Assembly (NCBI GenBank): GCA_016208305.1
Contig: JACQYI010000064.1
Location: 1 to 64,000, forward strand
Direction of reading: 5' to 3'
From: Oscillatoriophycideae cyanobacterium NC_groundwater_1537_Pr4_S-0.65um_50_18
GTDB lineage: Bacteria > Cyanobacteriota > Cyanobacteriia > Elainellales > Elainellaceae
DNA: 64,000 nucleotides
This document shows positions 49,815 through 59,469 of the stretch, piece after piece. The position numbers and the translations under genes are program-made. Position 1 is the first letter of the stretch. The number at the start of each line of letters is the position of its first letter. The notes under the pieces were generated by a model. That model saw only the letters and a list, made by a program, of their open reading frames with translations. It ran no database searches and was not told the origin of the DNA.

Positions 49815-50975
49815 ATGCTGAGGTTGAGGATCAAAGAAAGATTTAGGGTTTCGCTACTGCTGGGACTCATGGTGGGTCTACTGGCTTGGGGAACTGGCGC
49901 GATTGCCTCTGAAGGCAGCAGCCTGACAAATGTCTCTAGCCCCATTTTGGTGGCAGTGAACTCCAGTTTCGTTAGCCCTTTAGTGGAGCTATTTGGCAAT
50001 GTGGCGATCGGATCAAGAAGCTTTATCGCCAGCAATACGAGCGTTCGCGCTGATCCAGAAACGCGAATTTGCATTGGCAGCGAAACCAATCTTCAAGACA
50101 ATGTTTTTTTCTTGGCTTTAGATAATACTCCGGCTCCCGCATCTCCTTGTGCTTCTACCTCTAGTAGCACAGGTGAAAAGGTTAGCATTGCTCACCAGGC
50201 CGTGATTAAAAATTCTCGAATTGGAAATTTTACCTTTGTCGGATTCAATGCCCACTTGAGTAATGTAGTGCTAGAAGATGGGGCGTTTGTTTTGCATGGT
50301 GCTAGGCTGGAAAATGTCACGATCGGCAAAGATAAACTAGTGCCTATTGGGGCTGTCATCACTACGCAAGCCGCTGCCGACGCGCTTCCCTTGAAGACAG
50401 AAGCCAATGCCGATTTTCAAAATGAAGTTTTGGAAGTCAACGAAGAATTTGCAGATGACTACAGCGCCCTCTATAACAGCGACGGTTATCACGCGGTAAC
50501 AGGAATCACCCCTGCACCCGCGACTTCCTGGAATGCGACGCCCGTTAGCCCTCAGCTTGGCGAAAACATTGAGCTAGATGAGTTTGTGCGTATTGTGGGT
50601 GATGTGCGGCTAGGACGCAATAGCAGCGTTGGCCAGCGAACCTCCATACGTGCCGATGAGGGTTCTCCCATTGTTATTGGTGAGAAGGCTCATATAGAAG
50701 ATCGGGTGACGTTTCATGCGCTAAAAGGCACTAATATCCGCATCGGTAACGGCCTGAACACTTCTGATAACGTTGTGTTTCACGGGCCTTTGCAGGTGGG
50801 AGATGGTTTGACGATCGAAGATAATGCCATTCTTTTTCGCTCTACGGTGGGCAACAATGTCTCGATTGGTACAGGGGCGATCGTGGTCGGCGTTAATTTG
50901 CGCGATGGTGCCCAAGTTCCTGCCGATGCCCGAATTACGACTCAAGAGGAGGCGGATCAACTTCAGACAATTTGA
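49815..50975 (+). CDS. Exported tandem gamma-carbonic-anhydrase-like protein
   Basis: 386 residues with GAGGAG before the ATG. A signal peptide (about 1-31) leads to two left-handed beta-helix domains, about 55-180 and 250-370, each starting with the R-A-D motif (RADPETRICIG and RADEGSPIVIG). Compared with Methanosarcina Cam (zinc ligands His81, His117, His122), the N-half keeps only the His117 equivalent (His127 in VSIAHQAVIK) and has Leu100 and Lys132 at the others; the C-half keeps His81 and His122 equivalents (His301 in VTFHALK, His323 in VVFHGPL) but has Asp318 for His117. Periplasmic or lumenal by its signal. Alternatives: a structural hexapeptide protein without activity. A Pcp-like gene follows 24 bases later. 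Confidence 0.85.
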   Translation: MLRLRIKERFRVSLLLGLMVGLLAWGTGAIASEGSSLTNVSSPILVAVNSSFVSPLVELFGNVAIGSRSFIASNTSVRADPETRICIGSETNLQDNVFFLALDNTPAPASPCASTSSSTGEKVSIAHQAVIKNSRIGNFTFVGFNAHLSNVVLEDGAFVLHGARLENVTIGKDKLVPIGAVITTQAAADALPLKTEANADFQNEVLEVNEEFADDYSALYNSDGYHAVTGITPAPATSWNATPVSPQLGENIELDEFVRIVGDVRLGRNSSVGQRTSIRADEGSPIVIGEKAHIEDRVTFHALKGTNIRIGNGLNTSDNVVFHGPLQVGDGLTIEDNAILFRSTVGNNVSIGTGAIVVGVNLRDGAQVPADARITTQEEADQLQTI

Positions 50976-50999: not shown

Positions 51000-51485
51000 A
51001 TGACACAGATCTTGCTAACTTCGTTTGTGACCTGGGCTGTTGGGCAAACCTCTAATGCTGCCGATGACCTGTTGCTAGAGATTCTGCAAAACAATCCGCC
51101 GCCTTCGCTGGCCTTCTTGCGAGGATTGCCCGTTAACCTGCCTGTGGCTAAAGATCTGACGATCGCTAAAATTCAGCAGCTTCAGCCTCAGGCAGTCGTT
51201 CTCTGCGGCATGGCTGAATCTCGCGACAGGCTTAGCGTCGAATCTAACGGGGTGCGTGGCGATCGCCAGATTTATACCGCTTTTGATTTGCCGACCCTGA
51301 CCGCAGATTTACCCATGACCGATATCAGCGCTAATGCAGGCCGTTTTGTTTGCAATAGCCTGTACTATGCCATCCTGAGCGCGGCCTATCCCTGTGTTTT
51401 TGTGCATGTGCCTGTGCTGACGATGGGAAACCGTAGGGCGATCGTCAGCGATTTTCGGCAGATTCTAGATAGGCTGATCCGGTAA
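51000..51485 (+). CDS. Pyroglutamyl-peptidase I (C15)-like protein
   Basis: 161 residues, shorter than the usual ~215 of Pcp. The catalytic Glu-Cys-His arrangement is present: Glu81 (RLSVES), Cys118 (AGRFVCNSLYY) and His136 (VFVHVP). The first residues TQILLTSF and the segment VVLCGMAESR fit the family fold. It would remove N-terminal pyroglutamate from peptides if active, but missing segments may alter specificity. No signal peptide, so cytosolic. It lies 24 bases after the carbonic-anhydrase-like gene and is probably co-transcribed. Confidence 0.8.
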   Translation: MTQILLTSFVTWAVGQTSNAADDLLLEILQNNPPPSLAFLRGLPVNLPVAKDLTIAKIQQLQPQAVVLCGMAESRDRLSVESNGVRGDRQIYTAFDLPTLTADLPMTDISANAGRFVCNSLYYAILSAAYPCVFVHVPVLTMGNRRAIVSDFRQILDRLIR

Positions 51486-55005: not shown

Positions 55006-58000
55006 CTAAACCGGGGGTTCGGCAGGCGCTGCGGGTTCAGCAGGAGGAGCAGAGGGCAACACGGGAGATGTCGCCTCTGGGGCTGGAACCTCAGGAGTGG
55101 GCACAATGGAGGGCTGAGGTGCGGGTGGAGAGGCTATCTCTGACCACAGCGAGTAGCCCAATAGCCCCGCTACTAAACCACTCACGCCTATCAACACTGC
55201 CGAGAAAATCCAGGATGTGCCGCTGCTTTCGGGGCTAACCAAGGCAGGAGGCAAATATCCTTCTCCCTGACCATTTCCCGCAGTGTAGGCTGCCACATCT
55301 CGACCTCCATTGCCGTACTCCGGCTGGCTATATCCCTGATTGACATAAGCTTCAGATGACATATCCCGATCGAATTCTTCGAGTTGGGCTTCGAGCTGCT
55401 CTTGTGAGAGTTCTGAAGAATTCGTCGAGCTTTCCCAAACGGGTTCTATGCTGGGTTCTATGCTGGATTCTGTGAAAATGGGTAAGTCTATTTCTCGACG
55501 GGTTTCGACTTCATCATTCAAGGGGTCAATCCACTCTTCTTCTAAAGCCTGTTCATCAACCGTTGAGGCGACATTAGCTTCTTCCGCAAAATAGTCTTCT
55601 GGTTCGACTGACAAAGAAAGATTGGCAATGTCTTGGTTGAGATCCTGATCTAGCTCCTCATCCAAGGTGCTGAAATCCCTGTCTTCCAAGCTTTGTGTAG
55701 CCGTAAATTCTTCATCCCAATTAGGAAAGTCTGTTGCAGTCTCTTCTGTTTCTGCATCTACGGCGGCATTGACTGCTGCATCTATCGATAGGTCATCCGA
55801 ATCGACCAAAAGGTCATCTACCAAAAAGTCGATCGCTTCTTCGTCGGGCTGGTCAAGCAAGTCAGGGGGGAGATTGAGGAAATCACTATCAAGTTCTAGA
55901 TCGTTCTCTAAATCGCTAGAGGCATGGTTGAGATTATTGCCTGAAAAACCTTGTAGGGATGAACCTGTACGGCGATCGTCCAAGAAATCTAAGGGCAGAT
56001 CGAGATCATTATCGTCTGTATTAAAATCATTTGCGTCAGAAAGCTCAGGAACAGGTTGGGAGGCTGTCTCAGCTGTAGTTGTCAGATCCTCATCGTTTGC
56101 ATCTAAAAATTCAATGCCCAAATCATCCGGTGAAGTCTCATGCATGAGACTCGCTAACGGCTCATCGGGTGTGTTGTCCGAAAAATCAGAAAAGTCGAGC
56201 AGATCAGGGGAAGCATCGGCTTCAGCAGATTCCAGAGAGTCGATCGCCAATGAATTCTCAACAGCGTTATCCAATGGGCTATCGTCAAGGTCACTGAGGA
56301 ATTCTGTCGGTAAGTCAGCAATGGCGTTGTCAATGAGTGTGTCGTCACTCAAAACCTCATCACTAAATAGATCCTCTTGCATCTGCCCTGAGTCCTCTAA
56401 GAAAGGATCAGGTTCTTCCCCTAGATCTTCTAGAGACAGAGTTGCCAGAAGATCGGCTTCATCTAAGATTGATTCTTCAGAATCGTGCTCCAGCGGCTCT
56501 TGAAAGAGTGATTCAGAAGGGTCACTCAATGGATCATCTGACGCATCCAAAGAGAACTCTTCTGATGCAATCGGTAGGTCTGCGGCGATTGGATCTTCAG
56601 AAAATAGATTGCCAGAGGGCAAGTCTAGCAAGATGGCATTGTCATCGCTTAGATCGGCTGGATTATCTTGAAGCGGCTCGTCAAAGAGCAATAGATCATC
56701 CACCTCAGAGGTTGATTCTTGCAGGGAATCACCCAAGGCTGCGAGCGATAGGTCAGTATCTAGCTCTGATTCCAGTTCTAGCTCTGACTGCTCTAAAAAT
56801 AAGTCAGGCTCGTCAGACAATAGATCGATCGGTTCTTCGGGCAAAAGCTGCTCAGCAAATAGATCTTCTGACGGGTCTGAAGCTTCTGTGCGATCGAACA
56901 ATGGCTCCTCTTCTAACTCAAAAGAATGCTCGTCAGTTTCTGCCCAAAGGTTATCAAGCTGCTCTTCTAATAAGGGCAAAGGCAGATCCTGCTGAGGTTC
57001 TAAAGTTGGCTCGGTCACAGGCTCCGTCGTTTGGGCGATCGGGTCTACTGTAGGGTCTCCAAAGACATACTCGATCGGGTCTTCAGTCAAGCCTTGCAGA
57101 TCTTCTGTAAACAAAGGATCGGAGAGAGGTTGCAGCTCATCTTCAGCTCCTGCTGGAGACGAAAACTCCTCTAATCCTGTGGGAGTTTCATTCAATTCAG
57201 CGAAGAAATCAGGCTCAGCCAGTGGGTCAGCCAGTGGGTCAGTTGATGATTCTGCTTCTGCCAGCCAGCTATCTGCCGATTCTGAGGTGCTTTCGGTGAA
57301 TGATAGATCAGAGTCTAGTAAGTCAGGCTGAGGTTCTAAAGAGGCTTCAGAAGTTTCATTCAATTCAGCGAAGAAATCAGGCACAGCTAGGGGGTCAGCC
57401 AGTGGGTCAGTCGATAGTTCTGCTTCTGCTAGCCAGCTATCTGCCGATTCTGAGGTGCTTTCGGTGAATGAGAGATCAGAGTCCAGTAAGTCAGGCTGGA
57501 GATCTGCTGATTCTTCGGAGAACAAATCTGCGATCGCTGTATCGGCTGGTGTTTCTTCAGTCGGCCAATCTAGAGAAAAATCAGAAGACTCTTCAGTCAA
57601 TAAATCCTGCAATGAATCTGCTGGTTCAGAGGCGTCGTCGGCCAATAAATCCTGGAATGAATCCTCTAGTGCTGGCGTTTCGCTAAATTCACTCACGTCA
57701 GGGATAGTGACGTCAGGGATGGCGACATCGGGGATGGACACATCAGGGATGGACACATCCGGAATGGTGATATCAGTCTCGAAGTTGGATGAGGAGTCTG
57801 CAAACAAATCTAGAGCAGAATCTACGTCCGAATCTGCCGTTTCAGATGAATCACTCAAAGCCAGATCAAATGAGCCGTCAGGTTCATCTAGAAACAGATC
57901 GGTGGTGAGTTCAGTCTCAGGTTCGGCATCCAGATCGATCGCGGCTGCATCTAAAAAGAAATCTGTTTCAGAATCCCTGTCAGATTCAGCGATCGAGACA

Positions 58001-59076
58001 GGAGCATCGTCTGAAAATAGATCTTGAGTCGGCAGCTCCAACGAGTCCTCTGAAGAGGGTTCCTCACCAAATAGATCGTCCATGCTGGTGAAGTCGGGCG
58101 ATAAGTCTGCGTCGATCAAGTCAGCCGTCGGTGTTGCAGCGGCATCTGATTCTTCTGCTGCAAACAAGTCTGCTATTTCAGTAGAGGAATTTCTTTCGGG
58201 AAGCTCATCGGGGACGCTGGAGACTTCTGGGGCTTCTTCTGCAAATAAATCCTGAAACTCGGCCTCAGAGATTGGCTCTTCAGCATCCAAAGACAGGTCA
58301 AAATCTTGCGATGGTTCGGCAGATTGCTCTGCCCAAAGGCTTGCAAGCTGCGCTTCTAGCTGCTGCTGCTCAGGATCAGTGCTGAGAGGCTGTGGCACAT
58401 CGGTCGGTTCTTCAAAGTCTAGCCCTGCAAAATCTAATGTGTCGGGTAAGGATTCTGGCAGCGCCGTATCTTCAGCAAATTCGTTAAACAAAAGCGGCGA
58501 TTCCTCTGGGGCGATCGCCAAGGCGTCTTCGAGTGACGGCTCTCCCAGCAGCGCATCCTCTAACAGCAAGTCCTCTGACTCTGTGCGGTAGGGTGCAGGC
58601 TCTTCTAGAGGAGACTCTTCTAAACTAGAGAGATCAATCCCCAAATCGGTATCTGCTGCCAGTAGATCAGCACTCAGATCGGTCTGCCCATCTGGATCTG
58701 CGATTAGATCAGGCTCTACTGTTCGATCTGCTGGGTCTGGATCGACTGCAACCGCCAGTTCGGTGTCTAGATCGGGCATTGCGATCGCTAAATCTAGCTC
58801 TTGCATCCAGGCAGGCAGCATTGCCCCGCTTTGCTGACCCACAATGCGAACAAATCGAATCGATTCAACGCCCAAGTTGGCAATTCCTTTCTGGACAAAT
58901 GCCGTCAGGGCTTCGCGACTGGGAACTCGCTCAGCTTCCAGAACAACCTCTAATAGGTCTTCCTGACGCTCGACGGTAGCCGTCATACCCCTGGGCTGAA
59001 GCGATTGATTCATCAAGAGGGCGATCGCCTCTGGATCTCCCTGCTTGGCTAGTTCTAAAATATGTGGCTGTGTCAT
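55006..59076 (-). CDS. Giant acidic disordered protein with C-terminal membrane anchor
   Basis: 1,356 residues from the Met at 59076 (MTQPHILELAKQGDPEAIA); an upstream Met (59151) would add 25 residues. An N-terminal folded domain of about 95 residues (PHILELAKQGDPEAIALLM to FVRIVGQQSGAMLPAWMQEL) is followed by some 1,150 residues of Asp/Glu/Ser/Leu-rich low complexity, with short LF/LL-acidic repeats. Five IPDV-x units occur in a row (57697-57767), and one 56-residue block is duplicated. One membrane segment near the C-terminus (IFSAVLIGVSGLVAGLLGYS) precedes a Pro/Ala-rich tail. No enzyme motif; probably a scaffold or surface polymer. Very negative net charge. Nearby genes give no functional clue. 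Confidence 0.85.
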   Translation of the reverse strand: MTQPHILELAKQGDPEAIALLMNQSLQPRGMTATVERQEDLLEVVLEAERVPSREALTAFVQKGIANLGVESIRFVRIVGQQSGAMLPAWMQELDLAIAMPDLDTELAVAVDPDPADRTVEPDLIADPDGQTDLSADLLAADTDLGIDLSSLEESPLEEPAPYRTESEDLLLEDALLGEPSLEDALAIAPEESPLLFNEFAEDTALPESLPDTLDFAGLDFEEPTDVPQPLSTDPEQQQLEAQLASLWAEQSAEPSQDFDLSLDAEEPISEAEFQDLFAEEAPEVSSVPDELPERNSSTEIADLFAAEESDAAATPTADLIDADLSPDFTSMDDLFGEEPSSEDSLELPTQDLFSDDAPVSIAESDRDSETDFFLDAAAIDLDAEPETELTTDLFLDEPDGSFDLALSDSSETADSDVDSALDLFADSSSNFETDITIPDVSIPDVSIPDVAIPDVTIPDVSEFSETPALEDSFQDLLADDASEPADSLQDLLTEESSDFSLDWPTEETPADTAIADLFSEESADLQPDLLDSDLSFTESTSESADSWLAEAELSTDPLADPLAVPDFFAELNETSEASLEPQPDLLDSDLSFTESTSESADSWLAEAESSTDPLADPLAEPDFFAELNETPTGLEEFSSPAGAEDELQPLSDPLFTEDLQGLTEDPIEYVFGDPTVDPIAQTTEPVTEPTLEPQQDLPLPLLEEQLDNLWAETDEHSFELEEEPLFDRTEASDPSEDLFAEQLLPEEPIDLLSDEPDLFLEQSELELESELDTDLSLAALGDSLQESTSEVDDLLLFDEPLQDNPADLSDDNAILLDLPSGNLFSEDPIAADLPIASEEFSLDASDDPLSDPSESLFQEPLEHDSEESILDEADLLATLSLEDLGEEPDPFLEDSGQMQEDLFSDEVLSDDTLIDNAIADLPTEFLSDLDDSPLDNAVENSLAIDSLESAEADASPDLLDFSDFSDNTPDEPLASLMHETSPDDLGIEFLDANDEDLTTTAETASQPVPELSDANDFNTDDNDLDLPLDFLDDRRTGSSLQGFSGNNLNHASSDLENDLELDSDFLNLPPDLLDQPDEEAIDFLVDDLLVDSDDLSIDAAVNAAVDAETEETATDFPNWDEEFTATQSLEDRDFSTLDEELDQDLNQDIANLSLSVEPEDYFAEEANVASTVDEQALEEEWIDPLNDEVETRREIDLPIFTESSIEPSIEPVWESSTNSSELSQEQLEAQLEEFDRDMSSEAYVNQGYSQPEYGNGGRDVAAYTAGNGQGEGYLPPALVSPESSGTSWIFSAVLIGVSGLVAGLLGYSLWSEIASPPAPQPSIVPTPEVPAPEATSPVLPSAPPAEPAAPAEPPV
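57186..57498. repeat. 168-bp tandem duplication inside the acidic protein gene
   Basis: Segments 57186-57330 and 57354-57498 are nearly identical at an offset of 168 bases, encoding the block PDLLDSDLSFTESTSESADS onward twice (56-residue period). Only scattered base differences separate them, so the duplication looks recent. Confidence 0.9.
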
Positions 59077-59469
59077 AACTCTATTTAGCTCATCAACTGT
59101 TTTGCTTAATTTTTGCTTTACAATCTTGGCATTGGCTTGTTTTGCTCCCATTTAGCGCTGGTTTATTTCAGCTTACTGATATAGATCTGATATTTATCAT
59201 TGATATCTAGATTGATGTCTAGAGATTAATATTCATTAGATCTCCAGTTCACTGGCAGCCTTTGGTCTAAGCCTAATCATCAGCCCGATACAGATTAGTC
59301 TGATATAGGTGTACCTAAATATAGGTCAGCTCGATACAGGTCAGCCCGATGCAAGTTAGCTCGATATAGGTTAGCTCGATATAGGCCAGCCTGATACACA
59401 TAGTTTGCCCAATAGGTCTCCCAATAGTTTGTCTAGCAGTTTGTTCAGCCTCTTATTTCCTGCACACTT
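59077..59469. other. Divergent region with a 15-bp tandem array
   Basis: About 390 bases between the acidic protein gene and the GH57 gene. It contains the 8-unit array at 59281-59401 and, before it, words of the form GAT(A/G)TCTAGA repeated near 59202-59225. No coding frame supported. Confidence 0.6.
59281..59401. repeat. Eight tandem 15-bp units upstream of the GH57 gene
   Basis: Units follow the pattern (C/T)AGC(C/T)(C/T)GAT(A/G)(C/T)A(G/A)GT: 59281, 59296, 59311 (diverged, 16 bases), 59327, 59342, 59357, 59372 and 59387. There are no spacers, so this is a direct tandem array. It ends 68 bases before the GH57 start codon. Confidence 0.9.

What the first reader, a model, noticed from the sequence alone, without database searches (positions are those of the whole stretch)
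49815..50975. Duplicated gamma-carbonic-anhydrase-like protein with zinc ligands divided between the halves
Seen: the first beta-helix half retains only the His117-equivalent (His127) while the second retains the His81 and His122 equivalents (His301, His323) and has Asp318 for His117. Known: in Methanosarcina Cam the zinc is bound by His81 and His122 of one subunit and His117 of the next. Inferred: the duplication may have split the interface site so that one N-half and one C-half rebuild a single zinc site, making an exported (periplasmic or lumenal) carbonic anhydrase. A difficulty is that a two-domain chain does not close a three-sided trimer simply; stacked homotypic trimers would leave both sites incomplete.
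Basis: partly seen in the sequence, partly recalled or inferred. Interest (0 to 1): 0.7.

Follow-up and report, generated by a model that had tools for sequence, protein, structure and literature searches.

The report
Tandem carbonic anhydrase, active site divided
A probably exported cyanobacterial protein made of two carbonic-anhydrase-like halves has lost half of the zinc site from each half, but in a strictly complementary way that is kept in at least 60 relatives, so it most likely builds one working enzyme site only where a first half meets a second half.

Summary
ORF 49815-50975 (+, 386 aa, signal-peptide-like start) carries two gamma-carbonic-anhydrase beta-helices. By alignment to Methanosarcina Cam, H127 is His117; H301 and H323 are His81 and His122; D318 replaces His117. 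The division goes beyond the ligands. Published structures place His117 and Gln75 on one side of the subunit interface (Asn73 and Asn202 inferred with them) and Glu62/His81/His122 on the other. The first half keeps the first set; the second keeps Arg59/Asp61/Glu62/His81/His122. Single-domain relatives keep all three ligands. Halves cluster by position, so the tandem form probably arose once; one copy sits on a Deinococcus deserti plasmid. Best explanation: an exported gamma-CA with one N-to-C interface site per domain trimer, working like plant complex I's heterotrimer. Not shown: assembly, zinc, activity, export. AlphaFold models were unusable. How two domains fill a three-sided trimer stays open.

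The parts
49815..50975 (+). tandem gamma-carbonic-anhydrase gene (386 aa)
49815..49910 (+). signal-peptide-like N-terminus (residues 1-32: basic start, hydrophobic stretch, AIA-S)
   Evidence: sequence, by eye; similar N-termini in most orthologues; no signal-peptide predictor run
49962..50390 (+). N-half beta-helix (residues 50-192), keeping the His117 side of the site
50088..50099 (+). N92, Q94, D95 = Cam Asn73, Gln75, Asp76; conserved in the N-half
50193..50195 (+). H127 = Cam His117
50391..50471 (+). segment matching the C-terminal helix of Cam (residues 193-219), with N209 = Asn202
50499..50972 (+). C-half beta-helix (residues 229-386), keeping the His81/His122/Glu62 side; ends without the C-terminal helix
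50649..50660 (+). R279, D281, E282 = Cam Arg59, Asp61, Glu62
50715..50717 (+). H301 = Cam His81
50766..50768 (+). D318, at the Cam His117 position (D/N in group A, mostly P in group B)
50781..50783 (+). H323 = Cam His122
50070..50072 (+). C86, conserved in group A; possible disulfide with C112
50148..50150 (+). C112, invariant in group A

Best explanation
It is an exported gamma-class carbonic anhydrase whose active site is built only where an N-half and a C-half meet side by side across the usual gamma-CA interface. Shown: two gamma-CA-like domains in one chain; strict and conserved division of ligands and second-shell residues; a tree that fits one origin of the tandem form. From published structures of relatives: His117 and Gln75 lie on one side of the interface and His81/His122/Glu62 on the other; Asn73 and Asn202 are placed with Gln75 by position. 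Inferred: the N-half supplies H127 with N92/Q94/N209, the C-half supplies H301/H323 with E282; zinc binds there and hydrates CO2 (or dehydrates bicarbonate) in the periplasm or thylakoid lumen. A trimer of domains holding both kinds has exactly one such N-to-C site. The likeliest closures are mixed trimers shared between chains (for example three chains making two trimers) or a partner filling the third place; this step is open.
For: H127, H301, H323 invariant and the complementary ligands never present in 61 distinct proteins. Groups A and B are only 28-31% identical in the helices, yet all four donor-side and all five acceptor-side residues fall among the 17 of 161 and 15 of 131 invariant columns (rough hypergeometric 9e-5 and 1e-5). 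Side assignment from Arabidopsis complex I: H130 (=117) with Q101 (=75) and Y207 on one subunit, H107/H135 and the E62 position on the other (PMC9873573). That heterotrimer holds one metal site, a direct precedent. The N-half helix containing N209 matches Cam's C-terminal helix; the C-half ends before such a helix. Halves group by position in a tree. In group A the N-half's unused face is less conserved than its used face (0.91 vs 0.43 bits; interaction p about 0.002-0.004). Signal-peptide-like starts and cysteine pairs.
Against: No assembly, metal or activity data. A two-domain chain does not close a three-sided trimer simply. The face-conservation test was post hoc, and group B shows no such signal (p 0.8). 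The proton-shuttle Glu84 is Lys in group A. AlphaFold models: one weak, the other apparently a wrong helical fold. Scores are below the curated cut-offs of both the Cam and CcmM models.
Confidence: 0.62

Rival explanations
1. A non-catalytic exported scaffold or binding protein: both halves have degenerated, as in CcmN or the CAL subunits of plant complex I.
For: Neither half has a full ligand set; Glu84 lost in group A; no carbon-concentrating genes next door.
Against: Degeneration does not predict strict complementary retention of ligands and second shell in 61 proteins across about 30% identity.
Confidence: 0.22
2. Stacked homotypic trimers (N3 and C3), with the C3 trimer binding a metal through H301, H323 and D318 of the neighbour (two His, one Asp).
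For: D318 is Asp in 14 of 15 group A proteins and Asn in one; threefold closure is simple.
Against: In group B the position is Pro in 44 of 46 while H301/H323 stay; leaves the conserved H127/N92/Q94/N209 of the N-half unexplained.
Confidence: 0.1
3. An acyltransferase or sugar-modifying enzyme of the hexapeptide-repeat class.
For: Pfam hits are generic hexapeptide families.
Against: Specific best matches are gamma-CAs; conserved residues are the gamma-CA site; probably exported, away from acyl-CoA (general knowledge).
Confidence: 0.04

Closest known systems
Cam, gamma-CA of Methanosarcina thermophila (1THJ, 1QRG)
   Same: Beta-helix family; C-half residues Arg59, Asp61, Glu62, His81, His122; N-half residues Asn73, Gln75, His117, Asn202
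   Different: Cam is one domain, a homotrimer with three identical sites; here two domains with the site residues divided
CcmM N-terminal domain (3KWC)
   Same: Best family match of the N-half; single-domain relatives keep all ligands
   Different: Carboxysomal, single gamma-CA domain followed by RbcS-like modules
Plant mitochondrial complex I gamma-CA heterotrimer (CA1, CA2, CAL2)
   Same: Would work alike: unlike subunits, incomplete sites, one metal site at one interface (PMC9873573, PMC7447434)
   Different: Three separate genes, part of a mitochondrial membrane complex, CamH-type; here one chain, probably exported
EcaA, EcaB, CahB1 (exported cyanobacterial CAs)
   Same: Proposed place of action outside the cytosol (PMC10096703)
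   Different: Alpha and beta classes, unrelated folds; that review lists no exported gamma-CA

Membership tests
gamma-class carbonic anhydrase (Cam/CcmM branch) | Left-handed beta-helix with gamma-CA sequence similarity | tested here: met
   Both halves match Cam/CcmM by sequence; the fold itself was not confirmed by the models
gamma-class carbonic anhydrase (Cam/CcmM branch) | Three histidine ligands, two from one subunit and one from the next | tested here: inconclusive
   Absent within either half; present only if an N-half and a C-half are combined
gamma-class carbonic anhydrase (Cam/CcmM branch) | Trimer | not testable with these tools
   No multimer prediction available
gamma-class carbonic anhydrase (Cam/CcmM branch) | CO2 hydration and bound metal | not testable with these tools
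   Needs experiment
Cam equivalog (NF040597) | Curated score of 380 bits | tested here: not met
   166 bits
Cam equivalog (NF040597) | Glu84, the proton-shuttle residue | tested here: not met
   Lys in all 15 group A proteins; Glu in 35 of 46 group B proteins
CcmM (NF053794) | Curated score of 550 bits and RbcS-like modules | tested here: not met
   182 bits, no RbcS-like part

The most novel reading that the evidence does not exclude
A family of exported tandem gamma-carbonic anhydrases in which a single chain provides both unlike sides of the interface site, with an assembly unlike the classical homotrimer (mixed trimers with a non-integral number of sites per chain, or a working two-domain pair without a closed trimer).
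Probability: 0.4. Interest if true: 0.75.

Novelty: new variant of a known kind. Interest (0 to 1): 0.62.

Why it matters
If right, it would be, as far as the papers searched show, the first exported gamma-CA of cyanobacteria, a phylum whose known exported CAs are of the alpha and beta classes. It is also a clean natural example of a tandem protein whose active site is divided across a subunit interface inside one polypeptide, making the heterotrimer logic of plant complex I testable with one bacterial gene. The window's own genome has no alpha-CA match, so this may be one of its extracytoplasmic CAs.

Tried and rejected
AlphaFold2 with 21 rows: mean pLDDT 58, pTM 0.45; Foldseek best matches include CcmM/Cam but weakly. 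With 67 rows: pLDDT 78, pTM 0.81, but the PDB second look lists pentapeptide-repeat proteins and pectate lyases rather than gamma-CAs, so the model is taken as a wrong solution and not used. Coordinates are not released, so H127 to H301/H323 distances could not be measured. The genome-contig scan gave one relative, Drouetiella hepatica. No conserved operon partner in group A. No single-domain exported gamma-CA was seen in the window's genome to fill the third place, though the search was not exhaustive. Searches for a paper describing a tandem or exported cyanobacterial gamma-CA found none in the held library, which is not the whole literature.

Full report
Observation. The ORF at 49815-50975 (+) encodes 386 residues. 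Two regions match gamma-CA families separately. The C-half aligned to Methanosarcina Cam gives H301 = His81, D318 = His117, H323 = His122, and keeps the Arg-Ala-Asp-Glu-Gly stretch with Glu62 (E282). In the N-half, SIAHQAVIKNS gives H127 = His117 and K132 in place of His122; NLQD gives N92, Q94, D95 = Asn73, Gln75, Asp76, and hence L100 in place of His81. The segment after the N-half helix (EVLEVNEEFADDY) matches Cam's C-terminal helix with N209 = Asn202. The C-half ends without such a helix.

Relatives. Group A (60-76% identical) was found in several cyanobacterial families, sparsely: 14 of 388 sampled genomes of the class. One group A protein, 60% identical and annotated carbonate dehydratase (WP_012694801.1), lies on plasmid 3 of Deinococcus deserti, which suggests horizontal transfer. 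Group B, about 30% identical, occurs in 53 of 192 sampled genomes of one family, some with a second, diverged copy. The named relative of the window's own genus is Drouetiella hepatica.

Conservation. In 61 distinct tandem proteins (15 A, 46 B), the N-half always has His at the 117 position and Asn at 202, and has Asn73 and Gln75 wherever that part is present. It never has Glu62, His81 or His122. The C-half always has Arg59, Asp61, Glu62, His81 and His122 and never Asn73, Gln75 or His117 (one group A row, L007, lacks the first part of its N-half). Six group B loci that the filter missed (L074, L083, L094-L097) are in the earlier table, with the same pattern. Single-domain CcmM and Cam-like relatives keep all three histidines, Asn73 and Gln75. 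With groups A and B at 28-31% identity, the four donor-side and five acceptor-side residues are all among the invariant columns. The p values given there are rough, because columns and sequences are not independent.

Geometry. The published Arabidopsis structure places zinc between H130 of CA1 (= His117) and H107/H135 of CA2 (= His81/His122), and names V89 and K110 of CA2 as the positions of Cam Glu62 and Glu84. At the CA2/CAL2 interface, CA2 brings H130, Q101 (= Gln75) and Y207 together (PMC9873573). So His117 and Gln75 share one side, and His81, His122 and Glu62 the other. Asn73, two residues from Gln75, and Asn202, taken to lie in the same region as Y207, are put on the His117 side by inference. 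Cam mutants tie Asn73, Gln75, Asn202, Glu62 and Glu84 to catalysis (PMC4519908). The division in the tandem proteins follows this interface: the N-half keeps the His117 side and the C-half the His81/His122 side.

Further tests. A tree of the separate halves groups A_N with B_N (support 93) and A_C with B_C (100), so the tandem form is best read as having one origin, with the division kept since (a quick tree with long inner branches). In group A the N-half's acceptor face varies twice as much as its donor face, as expected if only one face is in the active interface. The pooled test gives p about 0.002-0.004, but it was devised after seeing the numbers, and group B shows nothing. Signal-peptide-like N-termini are seen in both groups, and each group has its own conserved cysteine pair (C86/C112 in A; C36/C46 in B), consistent with an oxidising compartment.

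Mechanism. Most likely a gamma-CA whose only competent interface is N-half to C-half. Any trimer of domains that contains both kinds holds exactly one such directed interface, whatever its composition (NNC or NCC). The plant complex I heterotrimer, with one metal site out of three, shows that such an arrangement exists. Because Cam's C-terminal helix is retained between the halves, a side-by-side parallel packing of N and C seems easier than end-to-end stacking; this is inference from the general anatomy of Cam. Three chains could make two mixed trimers with two sites; a partner could fill the third place; or the pair could stand alone.

What could not be settled. No multimer prediction, coordinates, metal or activity data were available. 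Both monomer models are unreliable: one has low confidence, and the other, despite pTM 0.81, resembles pentapeptide-repeat proteins and pectate lyases. The absence of a description in the literature rests on a limited open-access library.

Context. Neighbours in the window are unrelated: an SLH-domain protein upstream and a short pyroglutamyl-peptidase-like ORF downstream, and no neighbour is shared across group A as a whole. The genome has no alpha-CA match, four beta-CA matches, CcmM and a CamH-like protein.

Noticed in passing
L118 7947-9089 (NC_012528.1, Deinococcus deserti plasmid 3): A 60% identical full-length tandem gamma-CA outside cyanobacteria, on a plasmid, annotated carbonate dehydratase; suggests transfer between phyla.
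   Followed up: partly
L067 6276-6500 and 8088-8627, and the same genes in most of the other group B loci L068-L072: Group B genes are flanked by a conserved 75-aa upstream and a roughly 180-aa downstream protein, both with signal-like N-termini and no Pfam match in the copies tested.
   Followed up: partly
L012 1489-2660 (G040): The group A gene is split by a frameshift in the linker, leaving N-half and C-half in separate overlapping frames; draft error, pseudogene or real split not decided.
   Followed up: partly
L028 1501-1701 (G096): A short stretch 67% identical to the C-terminal part only: apparently a gene remnant.
   Followed up: no
G730 C51 31199-32040: A second, broken copy of the group B gene beside an intact diverged copy.
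   Followed up: no
window 51000-51485 +: Short pyroglutamyl-peptidase-like ORF starting 24 bases after the tandem gene's stop; weak family match; no such gene appeared beside the tandem gene in relatives.
   Followed up: partly
window 55006-59151 -: 1381-aa highly acidic repetitive protein with a hydrophobic, membrane-like segment near its C-terminus.
   Followed up: no
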